Shown here one piece after another: positions 6,036 through 61,125 of a DNA stretch of 64,000 bases. The stretch lies in IMG/VR virus record IMGVR_UViG_3300028563_000018, positions 1-64,000 of that record, one strand, 5' to 3'. The notes beneath the pieces are model-generated. The model worked only from the letters and a program-made list of their open reading frames with translations, ran no database searches and was not told the origin of the DNA. The stretch's first letter is position 1; each line of letters begins with the position of its first letter. This stretch comes from a virus. The translations under genes and the position numbers were made by a program.

Positions 6036-6323
6036 ATGGCGCTCTACGAAGCTGAGTTCGTGGTGAACCAGGGAACCTCTTTTGAACGCTGCATGACGCA
6101 GATCTTTGAGGCACCGATGCACCCGACGACGAAACGGCCCGCGACCAAATCGGCGTATGAGTACTTGCGCACATTGGCTCGCGACTTTGGGCACCCGACC
6201 ACCACGTCGGACGTGCACGTGCGCGTGTGTCTGTACTGGCCCCCGAAGTTCCACTACACGGCGGCGATGTCGCGGATCGGCCAGACCAGCGAGGTCGACG
6301 CGTTCGGGGTGCGCGTGCCATGA
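6036..6323 (+). CDS. hypothetical protein upstream of rIIA
   Basis: 95 residues from ATG 6036, with AAGGGAG and the CCAACCCGACA box upstream. The alternation VHVRVCLYW suggests a beta strand. No family recognised. It ends in an ATGA overlap with the rIIA-like gene, so all three genes to 9462 are probably co-translated. Confidence 0.6.
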   Translation: MALYEAEFVVNQGTSFERCMTQIFEAPMHPTTKRPATKSAYEYLRTLARDFGHPTTTSDVHVRVCLYWPPKFHYTAAMSRIGQTSEVDAFGVRVP

Positions 6324-8353
6324 AGACCCACCTAGACATCAAACACGAAGGCACGCTCGGTACTGCCGATCTGAAAACGATCAAGTTCGACGAGGACGCC
6401 ACCGAGGTTCTGGAGGGCATCCTCATCGACCTGTACGGCGACTCCGAGCTTGCGACGATCCGCGAGATCGCCACCAACGCTGCGGACAGTCACGTCGCCG
6501 CCGGCAACTTGCGACCCATCGAAGTCGAGCTCCCGTCCGCGCTGCGCATGACCTACGTCGTGCGAGACCACGGCGTCGGTCTCGATCCCGACGACATCGA
6601 ACGGGTTTTCAAGTACGGCGCTTCCGACAAACGCGACACCGACGAGGCAGTCGGCATGCTCGGACTCGGCCTGAAGGCGCCACTGGCGTACACGAGTCAG
6701 TTCACGATGGTCGCCGTCAAGCACGGCACGAAGTCCACTGTGCTCGTCACCAGGAAAGAGTCCGGCGGCGGCGCATACCAGATCATCGACACCTGCGCGA
6801 CCGATGAACCGAACGGTGTTGAGATCACCATCCCGACGACCGGCTACACGAACTTCTGCGCGAAGGCCAACTTCTTCTTCCGGTTCTGGGAGCGCGGGTC
6901 TGTACTCGTCAACGGTGTGCTGCCGACGAACATCTTTCCTGGCCCGCGTGACCTTGTGCTCGACCCGGACGTGTTCATCACGACCCACCTCGAGCACGAC
7001 TACGTCGTCATGGGCAACGTGCCCTACGAGGTGCCGTGGGAAGAAGACGCTCTGGTGCGAGGCGATTCGCACGCGGTGGTGCGCGTTCCGATTGGGAGCG
7101 TCAACTTCACCCCGTCGCGCGAAGCGCTCAACATGACCAAGCGCACCAAGGAGGTGCTCCACGAAGCGCGTACCTTCATCAACGGCGGTCTGGAACGCCG
7201 GGTGCAAAACGAGATCGACGCGGCGCCGACCCACACCGCGGCGCTGCGCGTTGCCGCGTCATGGAACAAGGCGCTCAAGCTCTTCCCAAATCTGAACTAC
7301 CGCGGCGAGAGCATCCCGAGCGGGTTCATGATCCCGAAGGACGGCTCGAGCAAGCAGCATCTCTCGTGGGAAGTCTCGTCTAACTGGAACAAGGTCTACG
7401 GCAAGTTCATGTTCGAGGCCGAGTTCCTGTCGCGCCCCACCACACTGCACGTCGTCGGATCCAAGATCTACGGCCTGCGTGCCACCGTAAAGGACAAGAT
7501 CAAGCTCTACATCCAGGAGAACAACCTCGATGTCAAGCATGCGGTGCTGTACCCCGAGGCGCTCACTGACGGCAAGTGGCTCGACGACTGCCTCACGGTC
7601 GACTACTCGGTCATCCGAGAGATCAAGCTGCCCGACGACGGGATGGCGCGCAAGGCGCGTACCAAGACGTCGAAGGGTTCGTACCGCGTCGTCATGCAGT
7701 ACGGCGATGAGAAGGTTTACCCGGCCGACGAGATCATTCAGAATCATCTCGATCGCGTCGTCTACATGGGTGCCGGCATCCAGTTCGTCAAGCGCGAAGA
7801 GGTACGCAAGCGCGTCACGTCGGGCCATGCGTTGGTGATCGTGGAGAAGCCACAGCTCAACGGTTTCTTGAAGGACATCCCGAATGCTGTCAGTATCGAA
7901 CAGCACGTGCTCACGCGGTTGATCCCGTTCGTGAACCTGACACCCGTCGAGCAGTTCTTGTGTCACGCGAGCACGTGGGATCACACGCCGTTCGCGAAGT
8001 TGCCCGGCGGCAGCGCGAATGTGCTCGACCCTGAAGTGCGTGACCTGATCCAGTCCGTGAGCCAGGTGATCGGAAAGGGTCTGCACGTTGAGTTTGCTCA
8101 ACTGCGTTGGCTCGTCGCGAACTTCTGCGGCGTGGCGCCCCGAGTCAAGTTGCCCGAAACGCAGGCCGGTTTCAACGAGATCAACCAGCGAGTCCAAAAA
8201 CTGTCGCGTCGGTACCCGCTCGCGAGTTCCCGACCTTACGGAACGACGCCGAAGCACGTTCTCGATTACATCAACGCGATGCACCTCGCGCACGCGTGCC
8301 GATCGATCTTTACCAACCCGACACGCTCACCCAAGCAGGGAGAAACGAAATGA
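6320..8353 (+). CDS. rIIA: rIIA-like protein with GHKL ATPase domain
   Basis: 677 residues. The N-terminus is a GHKL (Hsp90/gyrase/MutL-type) ATP-binding domain: N-box E49-x3-N53-x2-D56, G1 box DHGVGLD at 83-89 and G2 box GMLGLGLKAP from 112. The length (T4 rIIA is ~725 aa) and an overlapping rIIB-like gene support an rIIA-family call. T4 rIIA is membrane-associated and affects lysis inhibition and exclusion by other phages; the role here is inferred. ATG 6320 is chosen for the ATGA coupling. Confidence 0.8.
   Translation: MKTHLDIKHEGTLGTADLKTIKFDEDATEVLEGILIDLYGDSELATIREIATNAADSHVAAGNLRPIEVELPSALRMTYVVRDHGVGLDPDDIERVFKYGASDKRDTDEAVGMLGLGLKAPLAYTSQFTMVAVKHGTKSTVLVTRKESGGGAYQIIDTCATDEPNGVEITIPTTGYTNFCAKANFFFRFWERGSVLVNGVLPTNIFPGPRDLVLDPDVFITTHLEHDYVVMGNVPYEVPWEEDALVRGDSHAVVRVPIGSVNFTPSREALNMTKRTKEVLHEARTFINGGLERRVQNEIDAAPTHTAALRVAASWNKALKLFPNLNYRGESIPSGFMIPKDGSSKQHLSWEVSSNWNKVYGKFMFEAEFLSRPTTLHVVGSKIYGLRATVKDKIKLYIQENNLDVKHAVLYPEALTDGKWLDDCLTVDYSVIREIKLPDDGMARKARTKTSKGSYRVVMQYGDEKVYPADEIIQNHLDRVVYMGAGIQFVKREEVRKRVTSGHALVIVEKPQLNGFLKDIPNAVSIEQHVLTRLIPFVNLTPVEQFLCHASTWDHTPFAKLPGGSANVLDPEVRDLIQSVSQVIGKGLHVEFAQLRWLVANFCGVAPRVKLPETQAGFNEINQRVQKLSRRYPLASSRPYGTTPKHVLDYINAMHLAHACRSIFTNPTRSPKQGETK
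8313..8323 (+). promoter_or_regulatory. CCAACCCGACA box inside the rIIA 3' end
   Basis: Exact copy of the recurring box, 27 nt before ATG 8350. It lies within rIIA codons and encodes part of its C-terminal tail, followed by CAGGGAG. Conservation of the box inside coding sequence suggests selection at nucleotide level. Confidence 0.45.
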
Positions 8354-9462
8354 CACTCAAATACAACATCGTCCAAAACGACGGAGAGCAGTCCAGCGTG
8401 ACTGTCTTCATTCCTGGGAAGGACCCACTGGTTGCGACGCGCGAGCACCCGAAGTTCGATCAGATCGTGCGCGAGGTCTCGCAGCAACGTCCGGATCTCA
8501 CTGACACGTTCGTGAGTGGATTGGAAGGCTTGTTCGACGAGTCCCGCAAGCTCGCTGAGCACTTCAACCGGCTGTCCGATCGCATCAGTGTTGGTGCGGG
8601 TCGGGTTTACTTCGACATGATGCCGGTCGACAACGCGATCACGGCCGAGATCCTGCGGTACGTGAGTGCCGGCCTCGACGACTACAAGCCGCTCGTCAAC
8701 TTCATGGAGAAGATCGAGACGAACCCGCTTGAGCACAGCCGCCAGAACTTGTTCCGGTGGTTGGAGAAGCACGACTTCGCCATCGCTCCGGACGGCGACT
8801 TCTACGCCTACAAGGGGCTCGGTACCGGCTGGCTCTCGAGCAACTCGGGCCGGGCGATCGTCAACGGAGAAGTCCACCAGGGTCGCATCCCGAACCGACC
8901 TGGTTCGGTCATCGAGATGCCGCGCAACGAAGTCCAGCACGATCCGCGTCATGGGTGCTCGACGGGTCTGCACGTCGCCAACTGGATGTTCGCCAAGGAC
9001 TTCGCTCGTGGTGGTGGCGTCGTAAAGGTGAAGGTGAACCCACGCGACGTCGTGAGTGTGCCGACCGAAAGCAACGACGACAAGATGCGTGTCTGTCGCT
9101 ACGTCGTGATCGAGGTCGCCACCAGCGAGGACAAGAGCCTGTTGTTGCGGTCCGCAGAACGCACGGCGCGTGTCGTCGGCCAGGTCGACCCGAACGGCAA
9201 GAAGCTCAGCGAGCACGGACAAGCTCCTGCGAAAGCTCGCGTGCCCGGCAAGAAGAAGGCGCCCGCCAAGAAGGCAAAGCCGGTCGCGAAACTGCCCGAG
9301 TACTACGAGCAGTTCAATCGCACCCACTTCAACGCGCTTCCGTTGGCCGAGGTGAAATGGCTCGCTGGCGAGTGGGGGATCGTCGGTCGCTCAAAGATGT
9401 TCCCGTATGACCTCATCTCGGCGCTCATCAAAGAGGCACACGCTCGATTGAAGACCTGGTGA
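8350..9462 (+). CDS. rIIB: rIIB-like protein
   Basis: 370 residues, ATGA overlap with rIIA. The central region carries the hallmarks of phage rIIB-like proteins: NFMEKIETNP, then DGDFYAYKGL, then CSTGLHVANW and NPRDVVSVP (residues ~110-250). A Lys/Ala-rich linker (~295-320) leads to a ~45-residue tail (LAGEWGIVGRSKM) resembling SAP/Rho-N-type nucleic-acid-binding folds, a domain not typical of T4 rIIB. The pair is expected to act with rIIA at the membrane or in phage exclusion; that is family knowledge, not seen here. Confidence 0.75.
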   Translation: MTLKYNIVQNDGEQSSVTVFIPGKDPLVATREHPKFDQIVREVSQQRPDLTDTFVSGLEGLFDESRKLAEHFNRLSDRISVGAGRVYFDMMPVDNAITAEILRYVSAGLDDYKPLVNFMEKIETNPLEHSRQNLFRWLEKHDFAIAPDGDFYAYKGLGTGWLSSNSGRAIVNGEVHQGRIPNRPGSVIEMPRNEVQHDPRHGCSTGLHVANWMFAKDFARGGGVVKVKVNPRDVVSVPTESNDDKMRVCRYVVIEVATSEDKSLLLRSAERTARVVGQVDPNGKKLSEHGQAPAKARVPGKKKAPAKKAKPVAKLPEYYEQFNRTHFNALPLAEVKWLAGEWGIVGRSKMFPYDLISALIKEAHARLKTW

Positions 9463-11286: not shown

Positions 11287-11933
11287 GAATGCCGCGCCGG
11301 ATAGCTAAATCTTCACAGCCCGGCTACTACGCCAAGAAGGAGTGGAACAAGGGCCGCGACTCTTGGGCGCAACTCAACGGAACAGAGTTCACCCTGTTCG
11401 TCGGCGACGGCGATCCCGAGAACGACGACCACATCGAGACGCCCGGCATCCCGTCCGTGCGAGTGCTCATCCGCAACGGGAACCGCGCTCCCACTCCGAT
11501 CACCCTGTCGAACATGACGGCCAACGAACTAGAGGTAATGCGCCTCTTTTGGGAACGCGCCATCAGCACAGCCCGACCGATCTGCGCGGCACTCGATGAA
11601 CGCGCTCAGGACAATCTTCAAGGAGGAACCGATGACGACGACTCTCTGCTCAGGCTCTATCGGCCAGTACCTCGACTCATTGTGCGCAATGGGCATGAGC
11701 CCACACACCGTGCGGGCTTACTCGTCGGACCTGAGAGCGATGGCGAGTTGGTTGGACCTGCACCCGGACGCCCAAGCGACTACCGAGACTCGGATAGCGA
11801 CCTATTTGACGACCCACCGTTCGAGTTGGAGCGCGAACACGACCAACCGGAAGTTGACAGCGGTGCGGTCCTGGGCGCGCTTCCAGGGGGAGCCGACGTT
11901 CCTGGAGAACTACCGGGCGCCGAAGGCGGCTGA
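11283..11933 (+). CDS. hypothetical protein overlapping the integrase gene
   Basis: 216 residues, ATGA coupled. The first ~110 residues look like a normal small globular protein. The last ~100 (Asp-, Gly- and Pro-rich, disordered-looking) are read in a different frame from the N-terminal domain of the recombinase that starts at 11632, giving a ~300-nt gene overlap. Either the two genes truly overprint, or an ancestral stop near 11630 was lost when the recombinase was inserted. No function recognised. Confidence 0.5.
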   Translation: MRMPRRIAKSSQPGYYAKKEWNKGRDSWAQLNGTEFTLFVGDGDPENDDHIETPGIPSVRVLIRNGNRAPTPITLSNMTANELEVMRLFWERAISTARPICAALDERAQDNLQGGTDDDDSLLRLYRPVPRLIVRNGHEPTHRAGLLVGPESDGELVGPAPGRPSDYRDSDSDLFDDPPFELEREHDQPEVDSGAVLGALPGGADVPGELPGAEGG

Positions 11934-12462
11934 CCAAGAGCCCCACCCCATCAGGGAGGGAATACCAGGGATCGACCGGATGCTCGAGATTCCGGTTACG
12001 CCATCCAAGAAAGCTCTTGTCGCCTTGTGTGGCCTGTGCGGATTGCGCGTTTCGGAAGCGTGCGCAGTACGTCCAGAAGATATCGACATCGACCGTTTAC
12101 TCCTTCGTGTTCGTGGGAAGGGTGACAAGACGCGCTACGTTCCGATCTCACGCAAAGCATGGATGCACATCATGCCTGCCGTCTTGGATGCGAGCATCGC
12201 GGGCGCTGTAGGGCGCTCTACGCTCGTCGGAACAGGTGAACGGTCCGCACGGGCGTCCATCACGTCGATTGCCCGGAGAGCGAAGCTCAGGCGGCGTGTG
12301 GCGTCGCATGATCTGCGCGCCACCTTCGCCACCGCGGCGCTCGACGCGACGAAGGATCTGCTCGCGGTCCAGCAGTTGTTGGGACACGCGGATCCGGCGA
12401 CGACGCAGATTTACACGAGTGTCTCGGAAGCACGTCGGCGTGACGCGGTGGAGGCGTTGTGA
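11632..12462 (+). CDS. compact XerC/D-like tyrosine recombinase
   Basis: 276 residues from ATG 11632, with AAGGAGG just upstream. The N-terminal ~100 residues form a SAM-like core-binding domain; the catalytic set is complete: R139 (GLRVSEA), K166 (GKGDKTRY), H226-x2-R229 (SHDLR), H252 (LLGHAD) and Y261 (QIYTSV). There is no AP2-like arm-binding domain, so it is closer to Xer-type recombinases than to classic phage integrases. It could resolve genome multimers or use a dif-like site; a second, longer integrase lies at 61085-62191. Confidence 0.85.
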   Translation: MTTTLCSGSIGQYLDSLCAMGMSPHTVRAYSSDLRAMASWLDLHPDAQATTETRIATYLTTHRSSWSANTTNRKLTAVRSWARFQGEPTFLENYRAPKAADQEPHPIREGIPGIDRMLEIPVTPSKKALVALCGLCGLRVSEACAVRPEDIDIDRLLLRVRGKGDKTRYVPISRKAWMHIMPAVLDASIAGAVGRSTLVGTGERSARASITSIARRAKLRRRVASHDLRATFATAALDATKDLLAVQQLLGHADPATTQIYTSVSEARRRDAVEAL

Positions 12463-12659
12463 TGGAATACGAGTGCGGCACATGCGGCTCGCGCATTCTT
12501 GTGTTCTACGCGCAACCAGATCACCCCGCTGGACGCGTGTTCTGTGCTGATGGGTCACCAGAAAAATCGCACTGGGAGGTGATGTGCGGCGAGGGTCACC
12601 CGTTTGTGCCATACCCCGGTATGCGAATCGAGATCGATAGTCGAACGCAGCCGTTGTAA
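12462..12659 (+). CDS. small zinc-ribbon protein
   Basis: 65 residues, ATG 12462 overlapping the recombinase stop (GTG 12459 possible). CGTCG near the N-terminus and CADG/CGEG later could coordinate zinc. No function assigned. Last gene before a new regulatory leader. Confidence 0.55.
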   Translation: MEYECGTCGSRILVFYAQPDHPAGRVFCADGSPEKSHWEVMCGEGHPFVPYPGMRIEIDSRTQPL

Positions 12660-12660
12660 T

Positions 12661-12787
12661 AGATAAAGATCCATCCAGCAGCTTGTAGAAGAGCATTCCC
12701 CTTCTTGTAGGGTCGGGCGGAACAGAAGTACCAGCCTCATCGGGACCTGCCGGCAAAGCGTCTCCCGAGCCGAACCCCACAGGAGTT
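12661..12787 (+). promoter_or_regulatory. structured leader: AGATAAAGAT box, conserved-loop hairpin, AACCCCACAGGAG
   Basis: AGATAAAGAT (12661-12670) immediately follows the upstream stop. About 70 nt later TCGGGA (12740-12745) pairs with TCCCGA (12763-12768) around the loop CCTGCCGGCAAAGCGTC. GAACCCCACAGGAG (12772-12785) then supplies the ribosome binding site for ATG 12796. The loop is shared with leaders at 14011, 42061, 51002 and 58168, where the stem sequences differ but still pair. Confidence 0.6.
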
Positions 12788-12795
12788 GCAGATCA

Positions 12796-13416
12796 ATGAG
12801 TATTTTCAATCGCGACCGCGATCAAGAGGAAGAGCAAGTCGAAGCTGGTGACGGGAGTGAGGGCATCGCAGCCCCGGTAGTCGCCGACCCGCCGGTCGAG
12901 GCCGTCGAAGCTGTCGAAGAGCAGCAGGACGAAATCGACGGTTGGGAAGACCCCGAGCCTGCGCACGCGAGCACGGAGTCGCCCGAGGAACCGCCGACCG
13001 AGGAAGAGCAGCTCGACGACGACGAGCGTCGCCCTCGCGGGTGGCTCGAGTCCGACATCGAGAAGCTGATCAAGGCGATCCAGTCGGGTGAGGTGACGAT
13101 CGATCCGGTCGGCGCTCCGCTCACGCCGCACCTTCTGTCCAAGACCCTCACTAACGTCGAGGGGCTCGCGAAGGCGCCGTCCACTGGTGCCGTCTCGGCG
13201 GTGCTCGACCGGTGGGTCAACGTCGGTGCGGCCGAGACGAGTTCCAGGCCGTACGCGTTTGTCGACTTCACCCCCCAGGCGAAGGAGCACGGTATCGCCG
13301 GTCTCAAGCAGGCAATCAAGGACCAGCGCAAGGCCGAGAAGCAGGCCCAGAAGGACGCCGACACCGAGGCAGCGAAGCAGGCCGCGATCGAGGCTGCGGC
13401 TGACGCGGCGGAGTAG
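12796..13416 (+). CDS. acidic hypothetical protein with Ala/Lys-rich helical tail
   Basis: 206 residues, ATG 12796 about 10 nt after CAGGAG. The first ~80 residues are highly acidic and disordered-looking, residues ~90-165 form a compact domain, and the C-terminal ~40 residues are a charged Ala/Lys/Glu helix likely to be coiled coil. It sits directly upstream of the ssDNA-binding protein region and shares its leader type, suggesting high expression during replication. No family recognised. Confidence 0.6.
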   Translation: MSIFNRDRDQEEEQVEAGDGSEGIAAPVVADPPVEAVEAVEEQQDEIDGWEDPEPAHASTESPEEPPTEEEQLDDDERRPRGWLESDIEKLIKAIQSGEVTIDPVGAPLTPHLLSKTLTNVEGLAKAPSTGAVSAVLDRWVNVGAAETSSRPYAFVDFTPQAKEHGIAGLKQAIKDQRKAEKQAQKDADTEAAKQAAIEAAADAAE

Positions 13417-13467
13417 TTACCAGGTGGAGCGGCCGGTGTACTACGCTTGGTGCCGTCTCCCTTACCT

Positions 13468-13513
13468 TGTCGGGTTGGTAGACACGTGGAGGGCCTGGAG
13501 CGATCCAGGTCCT
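13468..13513. other. antisense CCAACCCGACA box and GCGA-tetraloop hairpin
   Basis: In the 120-nt gap between 13416 and 13537, the minus strand carries an exact CCAACCCGACA box (13468-13478). Next to it AGGGCCTGGA (13490-13499) pairs with TCCAGGTCCT (13504-13513) around a GCGA tetraloop, 10 bp with one G-U. No minus-strand gene starts nearby, so this box copy is reversed relative to transcription. Function unknown. Confidence 0.35.
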
Positions 13514-13536
13514 TCACCGCGTCAGGTTGCGATCTC

Positions 13537-13866
13537 GTGACGGACCTGATCGTCCAGGAAGACCCCGAGCCCGACCCCCTTCGCGGCGGCAAGCATTACG
13601 AGCACACGCCGGAGCTACCCCCGAGGCCGTTCCTCTACTCGATCGATCAGGTCGCCGCCCTTCTGTACGTCGACCTGGGCTACCTGAAGAGCAGGTACCT
13701 CCACTACGAGGGACGCACGCTCGGGCCGCACTACCCCGACTACATCTTGGTTCGCAACATCGCACCGAAGGGCAACGCTCCCGACTGGCGATGCGCTGAG
13801 CAGGAGTTCGCGCGCTGGTTGAAGCACAAGGGGTTTCGACTGCACCAGCGCGGGTGGGTGTCCTAA
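13537..13866 (+). CDS. HTH-like DNA-binding protein
   Basis: 109 residues if started at GTG 13537 (an upstream start at 13447 would add 30 atypical residues). FLYSIDQVAALLYVDLGYLK around residue 30 resembles the winged HTH of MerR/excisionase-type proteins, and the Arg/Lys/Trp-rich C-terminus would suit DNA contact. It lies between two structured leaders and could regulate them. Family call is moderate. Confidence 0.55.
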   Translation: MTDLIVQEDPEPDPLRGGKHYEHTPELPPRPFLYSIDQVAALLYVDLGYLKSRYLHYEGRTLGPHYPDYILVRNIAPKGNAPDWRCAEQEFARWLKHKGFRLHQRGWVS

Positions 13867-13928
13867 AACAACACGAGAACAACGGATACTGAGCACAAGA
13901 CACTCGAATTTGCTCACGCCACAAGCAG

Positions 13929-14066
13929 AAATAAAGATTTTCTAGGAATGACGGTTACCAGCTTGAAGCGTGATCTATCACGCAATAGCTTGCTTTCTTA
14001 CCAGGGGGCGGCGCGTCCTGCCGGCAAAGCGAACGCGCGCCACCTGCCTTTGCCGAACCCACAGGA
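13929..14066 (+). promoter_or_regulatory. structured leader of the ssDNA-binding protein gene
   Basis: AAATAAAGAT (13929-13938) opens a ~140-nt leader. GCGCGT (14011-14016) pairs with ACGCGC (14033-14038) around the loop CCTGCCGGCAAAGCGA. CCGAACCCACAGGAG follows (14053-14067), ahead of ATG 14077. The order A-rich box, hairpin, AACCC box, ribosome binding site is the same as at 12661. Confidence 0.6.
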
Positions 14067-14076
14067 GTACCTTCAG

Positions 14077-14898
14077 ATGGCCCTTGTTCCCAGCGCGCCC
14101 GGACTCGAGAACTACACCGGGATGGACGACCTCAGTCCTGAAGACCTGACGATGCCTCGGTTGGCAATCGGGTCGAACGAGAACGCAGGTGTGTTCATCG
14201 ACAGCCAGACCTCGCAGAAGTTCAGCGAGGTCGACATCATCATCCTCGGGATCATCAAGCAGCGGATCTTGTGGCCCGCCACGATGGGCGACCAGAAGTC
14301 GAACCCGCTGTGCCGGTCGTACGACTTCGACCGCGGTCATCCCGACGAGGACAAGTTCCCCTGGAAGCAGAGCGGCTACGACAAGGCCGTCATCCTCGGA
14401 ACCGAAGACAAGACGATCCCCTGCGACGCGTGTCCGTTGAAGGACTGGGGTTCGCACCCGGCGCGCGAGAAGGTGCCGTGGTGCAACGAGCAGATCGTGC
14501 TCGCGATCCTGTTGGCGCCGAGTTACTCCCCGGCGATCCTGACAGTGCAGGGATCGGGGCTCAAGCCGACCAGGGCGTACCTGACGAGCTTCACGCGTGA
14601 TCGGCTCCCGCCCTTCAACTGCGTCACGCACGTCGAATTGGACGTGAACACGCGCGGCACCGTCACCTACAGCGTGCCGAGGTTCAGCAAGCCCGGCGAG
14701 CAGACCGACGTCGACAAGTACGGCGAGTACGTCACGACGTACGAGGGCATGCGCAGGTTCGTGCAGACGCCCAGGTCTCGTGATGACGAGAATACCGACG
14801 CGACTCCCGCTACGTCTACGGCGAAGAGCACGCCCGCACCAGCTCCCGTAGCTGCGAGTGATGTCGATGCCGACGACGACGGGCCGCTTCCCTTTTAG
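14077..14898 (+). CDS. putative ssDNA-binding protein
   Basis: 273 residues, ATG 14077 preceded by CAGGAG; upstream in-frame codons belong to the leader. The C-terminal tip DADDDDGPLPF is the acidic, Phe-ended tail typical of bacterial and phage ssDNA-binding proteins, which recruits replication partners. A CDAC plus later CNEQ may bind zinc. A flexible Thr/Pro/Ala linker (~245-262) separates the core from the tip. The body does not obviously match E. coli SSB, so the call rests on tail, size and context (helicase, clamp and nuclease downstream). Confidence 0.6.
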   Translation: MALVPSAPGLENYTGMDDLSPEDLTMPRLAIGSNENAGVFIDSQTSQKFSEVDIIILGIIKQRILWPATMGDQKSNPLCRSYDFDRGHPDEDKFPWKQSGYDKAVILGTEDKTIPCDACPLKDWGSHPAREKVPWCNEQIVLAILLAPSYSPAILTVQGSGLKPTRAYLTSFTRDRLPPFNCVTHVELDVNTRGTVTYSVPRFSKPGEQTDVDKYGEYVTTYEGMRRFVQTPRSRDDENTDATPATSTAKSTPAPAPVAASDVDADDDGPLPF

Positions 14899-20560: not shown

Positions 20561-20811
20561 TGCAGCCAGCGAAGTTCGGTCCGGTCGGTGACCGCAATGC
20601 TCCTGTCGACCTTCACTTCCACGTGACGCTCACGACGACAGCGACGCCCGAGAACCGACACAAGGTCATCGAGCGGTTCAACCGCGAGCTGGAACTCCAG
20701 TTCGGTTCAGCCATCACAGTCAAAGAGATGAAAGCAGCCCAAATCCAAGTGCCTATCGGGGGGAGCAGCCCAGACCATGCTGCAACAACTTCACGAAGAG
20801 ATACTCACTGA
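20560..20811 (+). CDS. hypothetical protein
   Basis: 83 residues, ATG 20560 in a TGATG overlap. It begins with a beta segment (PVDLHFHVTLTTTA), then a helix. The last ~12 residues are read through the start of the WhiB gene at 20777 in a different frame. No family recognised. Confidence 0.5.
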   Translation: MQPAKFGPVGDRNAPVDLHFHVTLTTTATPENRHKVIERFNRELELQFGSAITVKEMKAAQIQVPIGGSSPDHAATTSRRDTH

Positions 20812-21160
20812 CCCTGACACAAACTCCTGGCAGCAGTACGGAGCCTGCCGCACGGTGACAACCCTTACCCTCGCTGATTTTTTCTTCGAGGGCCGGTTCA
20901 AGCCTGGATCTGAAAACGAGAAGGCTCACATCAGTCGACTGCGTGCTGTGTGCGCGTCGTGTCCGGTGAACGAAGAGTGCGACAACTGGGCGACCCGCAA
21001 CCACGAGGCCGGGTACTGGGCGGGACTCACGGAAGACGATCGACGTAAGCGCAAGAGCCGACTCAAGCGTGAGCGGTGGCGAGCGTCCGACAAACAAAGG
21101 GAGAGAAGACGTGCTCAACGAGAAATGCTCGAGTTGTCGTTTCTTTCATCCGACGACTGA
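20777..21160 (+). CDS. WhiB-family iron-sulfur transcription factor (copy 1)
   Basis: 127 residues from ATG 20777. The WhiB signature is complete: C24, then C59-x2-C62-x5-C68 and the G-x-W-x-G-like turn GYWAGLTEDDRR, followed by a basic Arg/Lys tail for DNA contact. WhiB proteins bind a 4Fe-4S cluster and the primary sigma factor and occur only in actinobacteria and their phages. One of three copies in 3.6 kb. The gene overlaps its neighbours on both sides. Confidence 0.9.
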   Translation: MLQQLHEEILTDPDTNSWQQYGACRTVTTLTLADFFFEGRFKPGSENEKAHISRLRAVCASCPVNEECDNWATRNHEAGYWAGLTEDDRRKRKSRLKRERWRASDKQRERRRAQREMLELSFLSSDD

Positions 21161-23966: not shown

Positions 23967-24356
23967 GTGCCCCCGCAGGACCCGCAAAGACAGCAAATTG
24001 CGCGGTTCTTCACGTTCGACGACAAGGATCGCGAATGGCGAGAACGTGCGCTCTGTCGAACTCTCGACATGCCCGTTGCCGAAAGGGTGAGGCTCTTCTT
24101 TCCTGTACGCGGCTCAGCGCAGAAAGAAGCCAAGGCGATCTGCGCCGCGTGCCCGGTCAAACGCGAGTGCCGGGCGTACGCCGAAAAGTCGAAGTCCTAC
24201 TACGGGATCTGGGGCGGCGAAGCTCGACCGCACTTCGTGCAGCGGGAAAAAGTTGCTTCCCCGTCGGAGACGCTGACACTGGTGTTCGGCGATGAGCCAG
24301 ACAAGTCTGGACAATGGCGCCTGCCAGCACTTGAACGCTTCTACCGCGGCGAATGA
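23967..24356 (+). CDS. WhiB-family protein (copy 3)
   Basis: 129 residues if started at GTG 23967; no ribosome binding site is visible and the transcript may be nearly leaderless. EWRERALC, CAACPVKREC and GIWGGEARP give the full WhiB signature. The tail after the GIWGG turn is less basic than in copy 1. Unlike its neighbours it starts after a real intergenic gap with its own A-rich box, so it may be expressed independently. Confidence 0.85.
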   Translation: MPPQDPQRQQIARFFTFDDKDREWRERALCRTLDMPVAERVRLFFPVRGSAQKEAKAICAACPVKRECRAYAEKSKSYYGIWGGEARPHFVQREKVASPSETLTLVFGDEPDKSGQWRLPALERFYRGE

Positions 24357-25514: not shown

Positions 25515-26377
25515 GAGTCGCAGTCTCCGGTGGCGCAGGCTTCTTGGGCCGTGCCACCGTCAATCGCCTCCACGGGCTGGGTCACGACACGCTCTCGATC
25601 GACCGATCTACTGACGGCCACAACGCCGAGGACCGGTGGGCCTTCGACGTACGCAACGCCGAGGCGATGATGAAGGCAATCGACGGCTGCGACGCCGTGA
25701 TTCACCTGGCGGGCGTGCTCGGAACGTCGGAACTGTTCGACACGCCCGAACTCGCGATCGACGTGAACGTGCACGGCACGCTGAACGTCCTACGTGCGTG
25801 CGTGGCTGCCGGAGCGACCTACACCGGCATCGCAATGCCGCCGGTCTTCCCGTCGATCTACACAGCCACCAAGGTCTGTGCGACACGACTGGCGTCGGCG
25901 TTCCACAACAAGTATGAGCTGCCGGTGTCGCACGTGAAGGCCTTCAACGCCTTCGGCCCCGGCCAGGCGCACGGACACGGACACCCGCGCAAGATCGTTC
26001 CGGCGTTCTCGGTGGAAGCGTGGCAACGCAAGCCGTTGACGATCTGGGGTGATGGCGAGCAGACGGTCGACCTCATCCACACCGATGATCTTGCTCACCT
26101 GCTTGTCGACGCGATCGGCTTTGGCAACGACGAGACCTTCGACGGCGGTACCGGTACCTCGATGACGGTCAACGAGGTGGCCCGCTGGGTGAACATGGTA
26201 GCGATGAACCAGCACAGCGGCGTGCAACACATGCCGATGCGCCCTGGCGAGATTCCGACGAAGATCCAAGCGCAGGGTGAGGGTTGGGATCTCCTCGACT
26301 GGCGACCGCGTCTTCAGATGCAGTCGTTCGCTGACGCGGTGTTGTCGTACAAAGAGCTTGCCGAGCGCAGCGCGTGA
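25511..26377 (+). CDS. NAD-dependent epimerase/dehydratase (extended SDR)
   Basis: 288 residues, ATG 25511 (ATGA). The Rossmann motif GGAGFLG near the N-terminus, HLAGV after strand 4 and the catalytic YTATK are all present, followed by a sugar-nucleotide-binding C-terminal lobe. Such enzymes epimerise or dehydrate nucleotide sugars (UDP-glucose type). First gene of a six-enzyme carbohydrate cassette running to 30311; it presumably supplies the donor sugar. Confidence 0.85.
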   Translation: MRVAVSGGAGFLGRATVNRLHGLGHDTLSIDRSTDGHNAEDRWAFDVRNAEAMMKAIDGCDAVIHLAGVLGTSELFDTPELAIDVNVHGTLNVLRACVAAGATYTGIAMPPVFPSIYTATKVCATRLASAFHNKYELPVSHVKAFNAFGPGQAHGHGHPRKIVPAFSVEAWQRKPLTIWGDGEQTVDLIHTDDLAHLLVDAIGFGNDETFDGGTGTSMTVNEVARWVNMVAMNQHSGVQHMPMRPGEIPTKIQAQGEGWDLLDWRPRLQMQSFADAVLSYKELAERSA

Positions 26378-27042
26378 AGCTCGCCATCTACACCGCAAAC
26401 TTCGGCGGCATCGACACGTTCCACACACTGGCTGACCTCCCGAAGAGTGACCTGTACGACCGGGTGCTCTTCACTGATGACCAGACCTGTCGCTGGCGAG
26501 CAAACGAACTGGCCGACCACGTCTTCGTCGTCCCGCCACAAGCCAACCCGCGCCTCCAGGCCAAAGCCTTCAAATGTCAACTCCACTCGTTGCAGCATCA
26601 CGTCTCGATCTGGGTCGACAGTTCGGCGGTCATTCCGGACGGGGAAGCGCTCGTCCGGATGGCGCTCGAGCACCTGCCGTTCGGACTCTGGGCGCACCCG
26701 GATCGCACGAATATCTACGACGAACTCAAGCTCTCGGAGACCCTCCCGAAATACCAAGATCAAGTGCAGGAAATGAAAGACATGGTCGCCGACTACGAAC
26801 GCTACGGCTTTCCGGTGCACCGCGGCCCGCTCTATGCCTCGGGTGTGATCGTTCGCGATCACCGCGATCCCGTCGTGAACGCTGCGATAGCGCGTTGGTG
26901 GCGCGAGATCACCCACTGGGGCGTGACGCAAGATCAGCTTTCCCTTCCCGTCGCACTGGAAGATGTTTCCGTTTCGACCTTCCCGCAGAACCTCTGGACC
27001 AACGACTGGGTCCAGTGGGCCGGCCATAACCATCAGAGGTGA
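26374..27042 (+). CDS. glycosyltransferase-like protein (DUF616/TOD1-like)
   Basis: 222 residues, GTG 26374. YTANFGGID at the start, FTDDQ at ~34 and KCQLHSLQHHVSIWVDSS (~68-85) match the DUF616/TOD1-type family related to GT-A glycosyltransferases, where the WVDSS strand stands for the metal/donor site. Coupled to the epimerase by GTGA. Probably transfers the sugar made upstream; the acceptor is unknown. Confidence 0.65.
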   Translation: MKLAIYTANFGGIDTFHTLADLPKSDLYDRVLFTDDQTCRWRANELADHVFVVPPQANPRLQAKAFKCQLHSLQHHVSIWVDSSAVIPDGEALVRMALEHLPFGLWAHPDRTNIYDELKLSETLPKYQDQVQEMKDMVADYERYGFPVHRGPLYASGVIVRDHRDPVVNAAIARWWREITHWGVTQDQLSLPVALEDVSVSTFPQNLWTNDWVQWAGHNHQR

Positions 27043-33825: not shown

Positions 33826-35573
33826 AGTGTGCTCGTGTTCGGCAGGACGCCCATGTAGGGGATCGTCAGCACGCCGTATTCACGGACACTCAACCCGGCC
33901 TCTCGCGCAAAGTTCATCTTGTCTACGTCGACCGTGTAGACATCGCCGAAGGGCGTGCGGATCATCAGGTCAAAGCTCTCGTTGATCGCGAGATCCTTGA
34001 GACCGGCGATGATTTGACGCTTCTCGCGCGCGGTTGCGTAGGCGGTGTCGGTCAGGTGCACGGTCAGCGAGCCGTTCACTCCTAGCTTCGTGCTGTACTC
34101 GACGCGTCGCCCACGCCCGAGCAGATGCAACTCGTTCGTGTCGTACTCGTCGTCGAAGGCGTCGCTTGTCACGCCCTCTAGAAGAAAGAAGGAACCAACT
34201 GAACGAAGCACGTACGAGCTCGCCGGCGTGCTGTCCAGGTTCGACGCGAGGAACAGGCTGTAGTTGGAGTTGATCGCAGCGATGTTCGTCTGGACGTTGG
34301 TAGGATCCGAGAGCACGTTCGCGCCGAACCGCGTCGCGACCTGCACAACCTTGTAGTCGTTCAGATCTCCTGCGGCGTAGTCGTGGAAGGTGTAATTCGA
34401 CGAGTTGACCGTCTCGACGTCGATAAGTTCCCACTGATTCGGATCGACGATGCCGCCGAAGCCGGTGACCGTGGTATCCCAGCGACGACGACGGAACACC
34501 CACCAGGCGACCCATGTGCTGTCCTTGGAGGCGTTGGTCCACGCGACCGTCACGTAACCAAGAGTGGCGAAGGGGGAGGGGTCGACCGTGAACGACGGCG
34601 CCGCTGGCGACGACCAGGCAGTCGTGAACGCGTGCGTCCCGTCGCTGGTGAGACCAACTCCGTCAGTGACGTTGACCTGGACGGTGTAGCTGTTGCTGTT
34701 CTTGAGGATCCCGCTCGGCAACGCGAACGAGAGCGGGTTGCCCGCGAGCACGCCTGACAGGTAAACGACGGTGCCACCGGCGGTGACGTCGTAGATGATC
34801 ACCTCATAGAACGCACCAGCCGTCGAATCCGAATACGTCCAGGTGACCGTCGGCGTCGGGTTGGTGATCGCTCCGGTGGGAGCGGTGACGGTGATGACCG
34901 GCGCGTCGGCCAACACGAACGGTACGAGGTCGGAGACTGGTCCTTGCTGGCCGTCCCGATCCCACAAGGTGACAGACCAGTAGAGCTGCTCACCTTTGTG
35001 GCCGACAGCAATCGAGATGCCGCTGATCACGTTGTTGGGCGACGTGACCTTCGTGGTGTCAACGATCGGCGTCAACGTGTGGTCGTAGATGATGATCTGG
35101 TAGGCGGTCTGCGTGTCGCCGGGATCTGTGTCGTTGAACCCCCAAGCGAACACCTGCGAGCCATACAAGGTCGCCGTGCTCGCCAGACTCGACGGCGACA
35201 TATTGATCGCCTTCGGTGGATGCGAGATCGGGAAGACAACATACGGCGACCAGTCACTCGCGACCCAAATGCCTCCGTTGGCGGCGGGTACTGCTCGAGC
35301 GCGCACGTACCAGGTGCCGACACTCAGGCGCTGCGCGTCGGGAATCGTCGCGTTGTGGATCGTGCCGACCTGAGCGAGTGCGCTGTCGGGCTCGACGTAG
35401 TTTCCGGTGTTGGTGGTGAAACCAGCGTCCGACGCCCACTGCCATTCGACCTTGATGAACGGGAACGGCGAGAAGGTCGAGTTGATGATGTTCGCGCTGA
35501 GCACCGGCGTGTCGGTACCCTGCTGCGTCGTGGGACCGATCGCGTGCGGTGGGACAGGCCAGGGATTGCTCAC
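33822..35573 (-). CDS. minor tail protein with fibronectin-like domains
   Basis: 583 residues, GTG 35573 overlapping the tape-measure stop. Several Ser/Thr/Val-rich beta-sandwich units (~30-115, 120-225, 225-320, 325-420) with VEWQW, YIIIYD and TVAWT patterns look like Fn3/Ig domains. The C-terminal ~120 residues form a distinct domain containing EYSTKLGVNGSLTVHL, often seen in distal-tail-type proteins. Probably tail-tip or baseplate with sugar-binding modules. Confidence 0.65.
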   Translation of the reverse strand: MSNPWPVPPHAIGPTTQQGTDTPVLSANIINSTFSPFPFIKVEWQWASDAGFTTNTGNYVEPDSALAQVGTIHNATIPDAQRLSVGTWYVRARAVPAANGGIWVASDWSPYVVFPISHPPKAINMSPSSLASTATLYGSQVFAWGFNDTDPGDTQTAYQIIIYDHTLTPIVDTTKVTSPNNVISGISIAVGHKGEQLYWSVTLWDRDGQQGPVSDLVPFVLADAPVITVTAPTGAITNPTPTVTWTYSDSTAGAFYEVIIYDVTAGGTVVYLSGVLAGNPLSFALPSGILKNSNSYTVQVNVTDGVGLTSDGTHAFTTAWSSPAAPSFTVDPSPFATLGYVTVAWTNASKDSTWVAWWVFRRRRWDTTVTGFGGIVDPNQWELIDVETVNSSNYTFHDYAAGDLNDYKVVQVATRFGANVLSDPTNVQTNIAAINSNYSLFLASNLDSTPASSYVLRSVGSFFLLEGVTSDAFDDEYDTNELHLLGRGRRVEYSTKLGVNGSLTVHLTDTAYATAREKRQIIAGLKDLAINESFDLMIRTPFGDVYTVDVDKMNFAREAGLSVREYGVLTIPYMGVLPNTSTL

Positions 35574-41015: not shown

Positions 41016-42035
41016 TTACGCGACAGCGGCGAGGTCGTTGTAGAGGGTCGCGGTGAGGATCGGCGTCGCTGCGACCGGGCGCACGGCCTGGATCTCGATG
41101 TCGAACTCGATGACGTCGTCACCGCTGGGCTGCAAACCGAACGGCTTGATGACGGCCGACCCAATGTCGAACGAGCACGAATACAACGTCGCCGCGGTAC
41201 CCGTGATGAACTCGTAGGTCTGGACCGTGATGACGACGTGCTCGTGTGTGACGAGCCCGCCAGCGGCAGTGGCGGAAGACGTGCCGAACACGGCCTCCCG
41301 GTAGAACGCCGCCGACGCGGGACGCACCTTGGCGCCACAGGTGACCAGGCGCCGCTTCTCGGTAGTGTCCCCGAGGAACAGTGAGCCGATTCGGAAGTCG
41401 TTATCCTCGAGCTGGTTGTTGATGTCGAAGCTGAACGTCTTCGCCGGAAGCGCAACACCGCCGAGGGTGATCGTGCAGTTCGACGCCACCACTGCGGGCG
41501 TGTTGTCGAAGCTCGGGCTCGCCGTCGCCGACGCGGTGGGAACTGCGATCTGCGAGAGAGCGACGAGGTCGCAGGTGCCCATGAGCAAGCCAGTGGCGTC
41601 GGCCTCCAGGTGAAGCGCGTTCACCTTGGCGTCGGTGTACCGGAAGTGGTCGAAGTTATTGCCGATGTTCTCTTCGACGGAGAGCCAAGGAAGGTTGCTC
41701 ACGTCGACCGGAGTCATGACGTGCTTCATGGCGCCGGACTCGGGGTTGTTGTTGGTGTCAGTGTTCGTCCCGAGTGCTCCGTAGAGCAGCGTCGCGAACG
41801 AATCCATGCGGGGGTAGAAGGCGTACTGCCCCTTGAATGCGATCGGGCCGAGGTACGCGTCCACCACGTCGCGACCGCCACCGATTTCGGCGTCGGGGAT
41901 GATCAGGTCGCGCGTGCCTGCAAGCGCACCACTGCGCGTCTTCATGAACACGCCACCGCTGCCGGGGCTGCGGTAGGTGCCCTTGGACACCTGGGTGCGG
42001 AAACCAACGCTGCCCGACTGAGCGGTGAACCCCAT
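41016..42035 (-). CDS. major tail tube protein
   Basis: 339 residues from ATG 42035 (upstream in-frame codons belong to the leader hairpin). Position directly before the G/GT chaperones and tape measure identifies the tube protein. Beta-rich, with Thr/Ala-rich segments and a C-terminal ~100 residues (SGDDVIEFDIEIQAVRPV) typical of tube sandwiches. It is preceded by the conserved-loop hairpin and AACCCACAG box, like the capsid gene. Confidence 0.75.
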   Translation of the reverse strand: MGFTAQSGSVGFRTQVSKGTYRSPGSGGVFMKTRSGALAGTRDLIIPDAEIGGGRDVVDAYLGPIAFKGQYAFYPRMDSFATLLYGALGTNTDTNNNPESGAMKHVMTPVDVSNLPWLSVEENIGNNFDHFRYTDAKVNALHLEADATGLLMGTCDLVALSQIAVPTASATASPSFDNTPAVVASNCTITLGGVALPAKTFSFDINNQLEDNDFRIGSLFLGDTTEKRRLVTCGAKVRPASAAFYREAVFGTSSATAAGGLVTHEHVVITVQTYEFITGTAATLYSCSFDIGSAVIKPFGLQPSGDDVIEFDIEIQAVRPVAATPILTATLYNDLAAVA

Positions 42036-42046
42036 GATCTGCCTCG

Positions 42047-42089
42047 CTGTGGGTTTGTGCGGCCCGTTCGCTTTGCCGGCAGTGGGCCT
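42047..42089 (-). promoter_or_regulatory. conserved-loop hairpin leader of the tail tube gene
   Basis: On the minus strand GGCCC (42088-42084) pairs with GGGCC (42065-42061) around the loop ACTGCCGGCAAAGCGAAC, followed by CAAACCCACAG (42057-42047) and GCGAGG before ATG 42035. The stem sequence is unrelated to the other four copies but pairs, and the loop core is the same. Confidence 0.6.
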
Positions 42090-49799: not shown

Positions 49800-50972
49800 T
49801 CAGGTAGCAAGCACCTCGAGCACATAGGACAGGTCGAGGTGAGGGAACACCGGGAACGCCTTGATGCCGGTGCCTGCGTCGATGCCCCACGGGTCTTGCG
49901 AGGGCGGCGTCTCCCACTCGTAGTACCCGGAGGTCCAGTTGCCCTCGGGGTGTGGCGAGGTGAGCGTCTTGCCCCAACCCATCGCGTCGTCGAGCGCGTC
50001 GACCGACTGCTGCGAAGGCAGGAACAGGATCTTGTTGTCCGGCGAGAAGCGGTGCATGGTCCGCGTCGTCGCACCGTGCGCCCGAGTGAAGAACACCGAG
50101 TCGTACGGCTGAATCGAGATGCCTGTCGCTCGCTGGAACACGGCGAGTGCGGCTTGGATGCCGTCGCCCCAGTCGGGCAGCACGTACCGAGGGTCGATGA
50201 CCCCCGACGACGGACCACCAGCGACCGCCATGCCGGTGAGCGCAGCGAACTTGGAGCTCGTGACGATGTTGCGGATGACCTTCTCGGAAGCGAGAGCACG
50301 AGTGATCTCGACGCCGTAGTTGTCACGCATGAACTGCTTGACGGTGAGAGCGTTGCCGATTGGGTCGGCAGAGGTGCTGTCCCACGGCGTCACCGACGCG
50401 CCAGCCGAAGTCGTGGACAACGGAGCGCCACCGGTCTGCTGACCCGCCGGACGCTTGTAGTCGACGCTCAGGATGACCTTGCCGTCGTTGTAGGCGATCA
50501 CGCCTTCCCACATGGCCTGCATGATCAGCCACTCGAGACGGTTGTCGAGCTTCTTGCGCCGAAGGACCGCGTCACGCGCGTACCGACGATTGAAGTCGTC
50601 GAGGATGCCCGTCGTGATGGTGAGCGGAAGCGCGGACGGAAGCAGACCGTTGAGGTAGATCGCCTCCTGATACTTCGACACGTCGCTCGCCTGGTAGTGG
50701 TCCTTGATCGCCCAGTCGATGAGCGACGCCTGCCCCGTACCGAAGGTGTCTTCCTTCGCTGCGAGTTCGGACTCAGCGTCCTCTGCGCGAGCAGAGGCCA
50801 GACCGTCGGCCGTGTTCTGCACGTACTGGAAGATCACGTCATCGCTGTTGACGCTCTCAAACGGTGCGTACAGGTTGAGCCCGATGTGATCCTCAGGGAA
50901 GGAGCGCTCGCGGATGAGCCCGAGCATCTCTTCCTTGCGAACCAAACGATCCTGTGACGGGAACGTCGCCAT
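49800..50972 (-). CDS. major capsid protein (lambda gpE-like, HK97 fold)
   Basis: 390 residues, ATG 50972 with AGGAG upstream. FPEDHIGLNLYAPFESVNSDDVIFQY near the N-terminus (parts: LNLYAPFE, DDVIFQY), then RRKKLDNRLEWLIMQAMWEG (~145-165) and a C-terminal YYEWETPPSQDPWGIDAGTGIKAFPVF region match the phage major capsid protein E family. It follows the decoration protein as in lambda (D then E). It carries the conserved-loop hairpin leader. Confidence 0.85.
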   Translation of the reverse strand: MATFPSQDRLVRKEEMLGLIRERSFPEDHIGLNLYAPFESVNSDDVIFQYVQNTADGLASARAEDAESELAAKEDTFGTGQASLIDWAIKDHYQASDVSKYQEAIYLNGLLPSALPLTITTGILDDFNRRYARDAVLRRKKLDNRLEWLIMQAMWEGVIAYNDGKVILSVDYKRPAGQQTGGAPLSTTSAGASVTPWDSTSADPIGNALTVKQFMRDNYGVEITRALASEKVIRNIVTSSKFAALTGMAVAGGPSSGVIDPRYVLPDWGDGIQAALAVFQRATGISIQPYDSVFFTRAHGATTRTMHRFSPDNKILFLPSQQSVDALDDAMGWGKTLTSPHPEGNWTSGYYEWETPPSQDPWGIDAGTGIKAFPVFPHLDLSYVLEVLAT

Positions 50973-50991
50973 CTTCCGAATCTCCTCGTAC

Positions 50992-51032
50992 CGTGGGTTT
51001 GTGACGGAGTCGCTTTGCCGGCAGGCCCGTCA
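50992..51032 (-). promoter_or_regulatory. conserved-loop hairpin leader of the capsid gene
   Basis: On the minus strand TGACGG (51032-51027) pairs with CCGTCA (51007-51002) around the loop GCCTGCCGGCAAAGCGACT. CAAACCCACG (51001-50992) follows, and AGGAG and ATG 50972 complete the leader. It is in the 77-nt gap between decoration and capsid genes. Confidence 0.6.
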
Positions 51033-58071: not shown

Positions 58072-58217
58072 AATAAAGATGTACCCCAGGCAGTTCCAGA
58101 TACAACGGTGCAGTGGTTACGTTGTGAACCCGGCATGCACGCTGGGTGAGGTTCGGAAAAAGAAAAGGGGCCAGGGGTGCCTGCCGGCAAGCGAACCACC
58201 CCTGGCCCAACCCACAG
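58072..58217 (+). promoter_or_regulatory. structured leader in the 315-nt divergent gap
   Basis: AATAAAGAT (58072-58080) is followed by a perfect 12-bp stem (58168-58179 with 58197-58208) around the loop CCTGCCGGCAAGCGAAC, then CCAACCCACAG (58207-58217). The gap 58018-58332 separates the divergent late and primase operons and must hold promoters for both; apart from this element and a 26-codon ORF nothing else is recognised in it. Confidence 0.6.
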
Positions 58218-58243
58218 CGAGCAGATCCGTAGATCCTCCTGCC

Positions 58244-58332: not shown

Positions 58333-59061
58333 TTGAGTAATGATCTGGTCAACGCTCTGGCCCGCAGGTTCATTCATCGAACCGACGTGAAGGCTTGGCA
58401 ACACACCGATGGTGCGTACTACCCAGATCGCACCCCAATCACACGTGCCGATCTGAACGCGCACGTTGCAGGCACAAAGACTCTCGGCCACTACCTGCTC
58501 GGTACAGACAACAAGTGTAAATTCGCCTGCTTTGACATCGACCTGAACGTCGATGGTCTCTGGGACGGCGAACCCTACAAACCACGCGAAGAGTTCGCGA
58601 ACCCGGACAGTCCCTACCGAGAGGGCTTAATCGGTCAGCTCGCTTCGACGGCCGAAGTCTTGGCGCGCCATGCACACAAGATACTTGGTGTCGATGTAGC
58701 CATCTCGTTTTCCGGGGCGAAGGGCTGTCATGTTTACCTTTTGACCGGCCTGGACATCGCCGCCGACGTACGTGCTGCCGCGGTAACCGTGCTCGAAGCT
58801 GTCGGGCTTTGGCATCCCACGCGCGGCCAGAACTTCTACGGGAGTGACAACCCCGAGTCGGCATACACGATCGAGGTCTTTCCCAAGCAAGACACACTCG
58901 ATTCCAAGGATCTCGGAAACCTGCTCAGGTTGGCTCTCGGGATAAACCGTAAGTCTGGCAAGCCAGGACTCTTCCTGCGCGTCGGCGGCGGAAAGCGCGC
59001 CTCGTTCCACGCGATGGATCCCATTGCGGCGCTGAGCGGGGAACTGCCGTGGAAGAACTAA
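58333..59061 (+). CDS. archaeo-eukaryotic-type primase catalytic subunit (AEP)
   Basis: 242 residues from TTG 58333. D68-x-D70 (CFDIDLN), SGAKGCHVYL (127-136) and IEVFPKQDTL...NLLRLALG are the catalytic Asp pair, the His block and the basic nucleotide-binding part of AEP primases of the TOTE-like/replicative phage type. It makes primers for replication. It is encoded separately from its helicase partner, which starts 12 nt before this stop. It is complete without an N-terminal zinc domain, which the partner supplies. Confidence 0.8.
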   Translation: MSNDLVNALARRFIHRTDVKAWQHTDGAYYPDRTPITRADLNAHVAGTKTLGHYLLGTDNKCKFACFDIDLNVDGLWDGEPYKPREEFANPDSPYREGLIGQLASTAEVLARHAHKILGVDVAISFSGAKGCHVYLLTGLDIAADVRAAAVTVLEAVGLWHPTRGQNFYGSDNPESAYTIEVFPKQDTLDSKDLGNLLRLALGINRKSGKPGLFLRVGGGKRASFHAMDPIAALSGELPWKN

Positions 59062-60911: not shown

Positions 60912-61125
60912 GTACCTAGACATCCCCCAAGTAGCCGAGATGTTCGGCGTCAACCCACGCACCGTCTACAAGTGGACAGTCGAACGCAAGATTCCATTCT
61001 TCAAGCTGAACAAGATGATCCGGTTCAGCCGAACCGAGATCGAGGCGTGGCTCGAGCAGCATCATCACCGCGTGATCGATGAGACTACGTTGGCGGAACG
61101 TACAGACGTCCGACTCGATCACTGA
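60904..61125 (+). CDS. xis: excisionase-like HTH protein
   Basis: 73 residues, ATG 60904 overlapping the helicase stop. EYLDIPQVAEMFGVNPRTVYKWTVERKIPF followed by KMIRFSRTEIEAWL is the excisionase/MerR-like HTH. It ends 40 nt inside the convergent integrase gene, a classic Xis-Int neighbourhood, so it probably controls excision. Mechanism inferred from family and position. Confidence 0.75.
   Translation: MPEYLDIPQVAEMFGVNPRTVYKWTVERKIPFFKLNKMIRFSRTEIEAWLEQHHHRVIDETTLAERTDVRLDH

What the first reader, a model, noticed from the sequence alone, without database searches (positions are those of the whole stretch)
14011..14066. Five leaders share a hairpin with a fixed loop and a variable, covarying stem
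At 12740-12768, 14011-14038, 42061-42088 (minus), 51002-51032 (minus) and 58168-58208 a loop with CTGCCGGCAA(A)GCGA sits on stems that are unrelated in sequence but always pair: TCGGGA/TCCCGA, GCGCGT/ACGCGC, GGCCC/GGGCC, TGACGG/CCGTCA, and a 12-bp GGGCCAGGGGTG stem. This is what structure-based selection produces. Each is followed by an AACCC(A/C) box; four of the five then have a ribosome binding site and start codon close by. The targets are a 206-aa protein, the ssDNA-binding protein, tail tube, major capsid and probably primase, so one RNA element links abundant or replication proteins. A protein or RNA that reads the loop is the expected partner.
Basis: partly seen in the sequence, partly recalled or inferred. 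Interest (0 to 1): 0.88.

Follow-up and report, generated by a model that had tools for sequence, protein, structure and literature searches.

The report
Phage mRNA hairpins sharing one loop
A bacterial virus carries the same RNA loop on five different, well-matched hairpin stems in front of its capsid, tail, DNA-binding, primase and one unknown gene, which suggests that one RNA-reading factor controls several viral genes at once; nothing similar was found in its known relatives.

Summary
CTGCCGGCAA(A)GCG occurs exactly five times in the 72.9-kb virus record. All five copies are intergenic and in sense upstream of a gene, each closed by a 5-12-bp stem. The stems are unrelated in sequence; arms from different copies never pair by more than 4 bp. 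Refined shape: variable stem, asymmetric internal loop, fixed UGC/GCG mini-stem, CGGCAA(A) apical loop, then an AACCC-ACAG box.

A related box, CAACCCGA(CA), precedes about eight genes without the hairpin. The hairpin is thus an extra module on a start-associated sequence. This recalls the SAS/ESAS of Cluster K mycobacteriophages with the logic inverted: there the arms are conserved and do not covary.

There is no Rfam family, no sixth copy, and no convincing copy in 28 related records. The nearest relatives share only about 45-55% of their capsid protein.

Best explanation: a recognition hairpin in mRNA leaders, read at its apical loop by an unidentified trans-acting factor that sets translation or stability of five mRNAs. 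Rivals: 5'-end stabiliser, antitermination, loop-loop kissing, DNA site.

The parts
12740..12768 (+). Hairpin 1 (206-aa gene leader): stem UCGGGA/UCCCGA, core CC-UGC-CGGCAAA-GCG-UC
12773..12785 (+). AACCCCACAGGAG box with Shine-Dalgarno, hairpin 1
12796..13416 (+). 206-aa target gene, matches HTH DNA-binding PHROG 15020
14010..14041 (+). Hairpin 2 (ssb leader): stem GGCGCGU/GCGCGCC, core CC-UGC-CGGCAAA-GCG-AAC; the stem may extend further to CAGG/CCTG
14048..14055 (+). CTTTGCCG, exact complement of the hairpin 2 loop (possible pseudoknot; this copy only)
   Evidence: chance about 0.007 per site
14056..14067 (+). AACCCACAGGAG box with Shine-Dalgarno, hairpin 2
14077..14898 (+). SSB-like target gene (PHROG 5686, acidic C-terminus DDDGPLPF)
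42061..42088 (-). Hairpin 3 (tail gene leader): stem GGCCC/GGGCC, core AC-UGC-CGGCAAA-GCG-AAC
42043..42055 (-). AACCCACAGCGAG box, hairpin 3
41016..42035 (-). Major tail (tail tube) protein, target gene
51002..51032 (-). Hairpin 4 (capsid gene leader): stem UGACGGG/UCCGUCA, core CC-UGC-CGGCAAA-GCG-AC
50982..50999 (-). AACCCACGG box and AGGAG Shine-Dalgarno, hairpin 4
49800..50972 (-). Major capsid protein, target gene
58168..58208 (+). Hairpin 5 (primase leader): 12-bp stem GGGCCAGGGGUG/CACCCCUGGCCC, core CC-UGC-CGGCAA-GCG-AAC
58209..58221 (+). AACCCACAGCGAG box, hairpin 5; no start codon close by
58333..59061 (+). AEP-type primase, probable target gene, about 125 nt downstream of hairpin 5

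Best explanation
The five sites are copies of one cis-acting RNA recognition hairpin in mRNA leaders. Shown by sequence: the variable outer stem is kept paired by compensatory change, while an apical core (C-UGC-CGGCAA(A)-GCG with an asymmetric internal loop) is kept by sequence. The element lies 5' of a gene, in sense, and in four of five cases 25-35 nt before a start codon, next to an AACCC-ACAG box that carries or abuts the Shine-Dalgarno sequence. Inferred: a trans-acting factor, most likely a phage-encoded RNA-binding protein, reads the apical and internal loops and changes ribosome loading or survival of the five mRNAs together; the outer stem only presents the core. The targets are the SSB-like protein, the 206-aa HTH-like protein, the primase, the major capsid and the major tail proteins, so replication-protein and virion-protein supply would form one post-transcriptional group. 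Most likely step: translation initiation, because the hairpin abuts the initiation region without hiding the Shine-Dalgarno sequence.
For: Exactly five copies, reversed control none. Stems far above chance, and arms do not pair between copies. Fixed core with both-side changes in every stem pair. All five copies lie in the 8.6% of the genome that is intergenic, in sense. The covariance model finds the five and no sixth in the genome. Linked AACCC-ACAG box, with a related CAACCCGA box at 8 other gene starts. Capsid and tail genes have 3-12-bp gaps and no leader in relatives, so these leaders were gained with the element.
Against: No reader protein was found in domain scans of most unassigned genes. 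No copy in 28 related records or by covariance model. The primase copy is about 125 nt from its start codon. Only five copies, one genome, no expression data.
Confidence: 0.5

Rival explanations
1. 5'-end stabiliser or processing leader: transcripts start, or are cut, just upstream of the hairpin, and a 5'-terminal hairpin protects abundant mRNAs from decay; the loop would be fixed by a nuclease or host factor.
For: Capsid and major tail genes, usually the most abundant virion products, are the only two genes of the long late operon with the element. Promoter-like hexamers TTGAAG-17-TAGCTT (13963-13991, read by eye) would start the ssb transcript at the hairpin base. The primase copy needs no nearby start codon.
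Against: A generic stabiliser needs no invariant loop. The consensus promoter scan flagged no promoter on the gene's strand at any of the five sites.
Confidence: 0.22
2. Antitermination or elongation control: the hairpin plus the AACCC box act on nascent RNA as a nut- or dfn-like loading site for a factor that rides RNA polymerase into the downstream operon.
For: Hairpin plus linear box in leaders. LoaP reads a leader hairpin in this way (PMC12691694). The primase copy sits far from its start codon.
Against: Two copies lie inside one late operon. No NusG-like protein was seen among scanned genes. No terminator follows the elements.
Confidence: 0.1
3. RNA-RNA contact: the palindrome UGCCGGCA in the loop lets leaders kiss each other, or the ssb loop pairs with its own downstream CUUUGCCG.
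For: An invariant 8-nt palindrome; computed duplex -14.9 kcal/mol. Exact 8-nt loop complement in the ssb leader, chance about 0.007 per site.
Against: Kissing would have to break the invariant UGC/GCG mini-stem. The loop complement occurs in one leader of five. AAAGCG lies outside the palindrome but is also conserved.
Confidence: 0.07
4. DNA-level site: TGCCGGCA or the whole repeat is bound by a DNA-binding protein, as proposed for the ESAS repeats.
For: TGCCGGCA is palindromic. Cluster K ESAS repeats were judged more likely DNA-protein sites (PMC3203893). The 206-aa product matches an HTH PHROG.
Against: A linear DNA site does not need flanking arms that pair yet share no sequence. Orientation always follows the downstream gene.
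Confidence: 0.07

Closest known systems
Start-Associated Sequences (SAS) and Extended SAS of Cluster K mycobacteriophages (PMC3203893)
   Same: Repeated sequence just upstream of many gene starts, containing or abutting the Shine-Dalgarno; a subset carries an additional inverted-repeat module just upstream; restricted to one phage lineage; mechanism unknown.
   Different: In ESAS the 17-bp arms are conserved, the spacer varies, and departures do not support pairing. Here the arms share no sequence and covary while the loop is fixed. SAS is GGGATAGGAGCCC and lies in non-structural gene regions; here capsid and tail genes are included.
T4/RB69 gp43 translational operator hairpin and T4 RegA (PMC3014915)
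   Same: Leader element near the initiation region. In gp43 the loop nucleotides and upper hairpin are conserved while hairpin length differs. RegA acts on many mRNAs.
   Different: The gp43 operator is on one mRNA. RegA sites lack clear structure.
LoaP/dfn hairpin and nut-type antitermination elements (PMC12691694)
   Same: Small leader RNA hairpin read by a protein.
   Different: dfn is a UNCG-type hairpin with a NusG-family reader in bacterial gene clusters. No such reader was found here and the sequences are unrelated.

Membership tests
Rfam families (release 15) | Match at gathering score or a credible sub-threshold match | tested here: not met
   No match in the window; none at E<=5 over the two hairpins in 12640-14100 except an unrelated chance hit
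Cluster K SAS | GGGATAGGAGCCC consensus 3-7 bp before start codons | tested here: not met
   The box here is AACCC-ACAG / CAACCCGACA, at a similar place but unrelated in sequence
Cluster K ESAS | Conserved 17-bp inverted-repeat arms with variable spacer and no covariation | tested here: not met
   Arms share no sequence and covary; the loop is invariant
Start-associated leader element (general kind) | Repeated sequence enriched just upstream of gene starts, in sense | tested here: met
   CAACCCGA at 8 of 11 genome-wide copies before starts; hairpin 5 of 5 intergenic and in sense
Phage translational operator bound by a protein | Structured RNA near the initiation region with conserved loop | tested here: met
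Phage translational operator bound by a protein | Binding of a cognate protein and effect on translation | not testable with these tools
   Needs gel shift and reporter assays
LoaP/dfn or nut antitermination | Cognate NusG paralogue or N-like protein encoded | tested here: inconclusive
   None in Pfam/PHROG scans of most unassigned genes; N-like peptides are too short and variable to exclude

The most novel reading that the evidence does not exclude
A tailed dsDNA phage runs an RNA regulon: a single RNA-binding factor reads an identical apical hairpin motif in five separate mRNAs and coordinates replication proteins (SSB-like, primase, 206-aa protein) with the two main virion proteins, using a motif absent from Rfam and from all sampled relatives.
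Probability: 0.35. Interest if true: 0.78.

Novelty: new variant of a known kind. Interest (0 to 1): 0.6.

Why it matters
Repeated start-associated elements in actinobacterial phages were described in 2011 without a known mechanism, and the Cluster K version gave no sign of acting as RNA. This genome offers the opposite and more informative pattern: covarying stems with a fixed loop, which argues for action as RNA and points to the nucleotides likely to be read. It gives a small, directly testable set of leaders for finding a multi-target RNA-binding factor in a dsDNA phage.

Tried and rejected
Chance repeat: rejected. Coding repeat: rejected, no coding bases in any copy under my gene calls. 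Known RNA family: none. Terminators: none overlaps a copy. Further copies in the genome: none. Relatives found by capsid and helicase searches were searched by pattern and partly by covariance model: no convincing copy (best model hit 18 bits against 55-73 for the five). SSB, tail and terminase queries found no relatives in viral contigs. Analogous elements with other loops in relatives: the unsupervised scan found none of comparable quality; the G015 repeat is a periodic, collagen-like coding repeat. Antisense partner: no reverse-complement copy of the whole loop elsewhere, only an 8-nt complement in the ssb leader. Pairing of AACCC with the 16S 3' end: wrong polarity for a box upstream of the Shine-Dalgarno (general knowledge). 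PDB profile search with the SSB-like family: nothing. Literature searches found SAS/ESAS, T4 operators and LoaP as comparators, and no description of this element.

Full report
The window is 64 kb of a 72,872-base IMG/VR virus record. Gene content places it as a distant relative of the ~75-kb phages of Gordonia, Tsukamurella and Rhodococcus (Katyusha, TIN2, Monty, GTE7, ReqiDocB7, Perlina): major capsid 43-46% and major tail 44-45% identical in the best hits, with a matching gene set.

The loop CTGCCGGCAA(A)GCG occurs five times and only five times: 12747+, 14018+, 42082-, 51024- and 58181+. Each is closed by a stem: UCGGGA/UCCCGA, GGCGCGU/GCGCGCC, GGCCC/GGGCC, UGACGGG/UCCGUCA and GGGCCAGGGGUG/CACCCCUGGCCC. 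At random window positions stems this long have probabilities of 0.033, 0.013, 0.078, 0.013 and 0.0002. Arms exchanged between copies pair by at most 4 bp, and of 120 re-assignments only the true one reaches the observed total. Each of the five inner pairs occurs in at least two pair types, with changes on both sides. An unsupervised search for a repeated 10-mer carried on different stems puts this loop first, above all 30 Markov replicas. With five copies the permutation test cannot go below 1/120, so the per-site null carries the weight.

Refined anatomy: outer stem of 5-12 bp with no sequence in common; 5' internal loop CC (AC once) against 3' AAC (UC, AC); invariant UGC/GCG mini-stem; apical loop CGGCAAA, or CGGCAA in the primase copy. 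After 0-14 nt comes AACCC(C)ACAG or AACCCACGG, then AGGAG or GCGAG, and in four of five a start codon 25-35 nt after the stem. All copies are intergenic (8.6% of the genome) and in sense.

The box is part of something wider. CAACCCGA stands in the 60 nt before eight gene starts, out of 11 genome-wide copies (about 0.4 expected); CAACCCGACA precedes the starts at 3973, 6036, 8350, 11086 and 15621. These starts do not carry the fixed-loop hairpin. The phage therefore has a start-associated sequence and, at a subset of genes with intergenic leaders, an upstream hairpin module. CAACCCGACA is absent from 12 related records, so both layers look lineage-specific, as SAS is to Cluster K (PMC3203893).

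The targets are confirmed: major capsid, major tail, an AEP-type primase followed by a helicase, a 206-aa protein matching an HTH PHROG, and the SSB-like protein. The last has no named family, but its C-terminus is DDDGPLPF, with DDDDEPPF and DDDEEPPF in homologues, typical of bacterial SSBs (general knowledge). In relatives the capsid and tail genes follow their neighbours by 3-12 bp and have no leader, so these two leaders are particular to this lineage.

No sampled relative carries the element. Exact and relaxed patterns in viral and genomic collections gave only chance-like hits. Pattern searches of 28 related records and a covariance model on most of that sequence found nothing convincing. 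The best relatives share only 55% of capsid and 51% of helicase sequence, and records very near the window may be left out. The evidence for structure is therefore covariation among copies within one genome: sound but small.

Mechanism. Covarying arms with a fixed loop argue against a DNA site and for RNA that is presented by a stem and read at the loop. Position near the initiation region, next to a start-associated box, makes control of translation initiation the favoured step. The primase copy, about 125 nt from its start, and the placement at the two major virion genes keep a 5'-end stabiliser or processing role in play. The ssb leader has promoter-like hexamers that would start the transcript at the hairpin base (13963-13991, read by eye; the consensus scan did not flag them). 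An antitermination role is possible, but no cognate factor was seen. The 8-nt palindrome in the loop and the 8-nt loop complement in the ssb leader leave RNA-RNA contacts as a minor rival. Shown: copies, stems, covariation, position, box. Inferred: formation in vivo, reader, effect.

Compared with known kinds, it works most like phage leader operators such as the T4/RB69 gp43 hairpin, where loop nucleotides are conserved and hairpin length differs (PMC3014915), spread over several mRNAs as RegA's action is by other means. In layout it resembles SAS/ESAS, but it fails the defining features of ESAS (conserved arms that do not covary) and of the SAS consensus. It is filed as a new variant of a known kind, not as a member of either.

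Noticed in passing
window 3944, 6006, 8314, 11064, 15598 (+) and 13477 (-): CAACCCGACA, a start-associated box just before gene starts (the - copy is not); six copies here, none in 12 related records.
   Followed up: partly
window 13968-13983: Perfect 16-bp palindrome GCGTGATCTATCACGC between promoter-like hexamers TTGAAG and TAGCTT, just 5' of the ssb-leader hairpin: a likely repressor site.
   Followed up: no
L216 33073-36535 (Rhodococcus phage Perlina); L279 24576-27487 (ReqiDocB7): Arrays of repeated cassettes spaced about 0.4 kb: conserved TCAGACAGTTTG or CTGAGCGCGTTTG box, a hairpin whose stem varies in a compensated way, TTGACATTCT promoter-like sequence, and a start-associated GAGGCTAGAAATG-type sequence.
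   Followed up: partly
window 6320-8353 and 8350-9462 (+): Adjacent genes matching rIIA and rIIB lysis-inhibitor PHROGs in an actinophage-like genome.
   Followed up: no
window 11632-12462 (+) and 61085-62173 (-): Two tyrosine-recombinase (integrase) genes in one record.
   Followed up: no
window 35570-40159 (-): Tape-measure homologue of only 1529 aa, against roughly 2900-3100 aa in relatives with similar genomes.
   Followed up: no
window 26374-27042 (+); record 64551-65615 (L273:551-1615, -): TOD1/MUCI70 glycosyltransferase-like gene and a GH114 glycoside hydrolase.
   Followed up: no
window 20777-21160 and 23967-24356 (+): Two WhiB-family transcription-factor genes.
   Followed up: no
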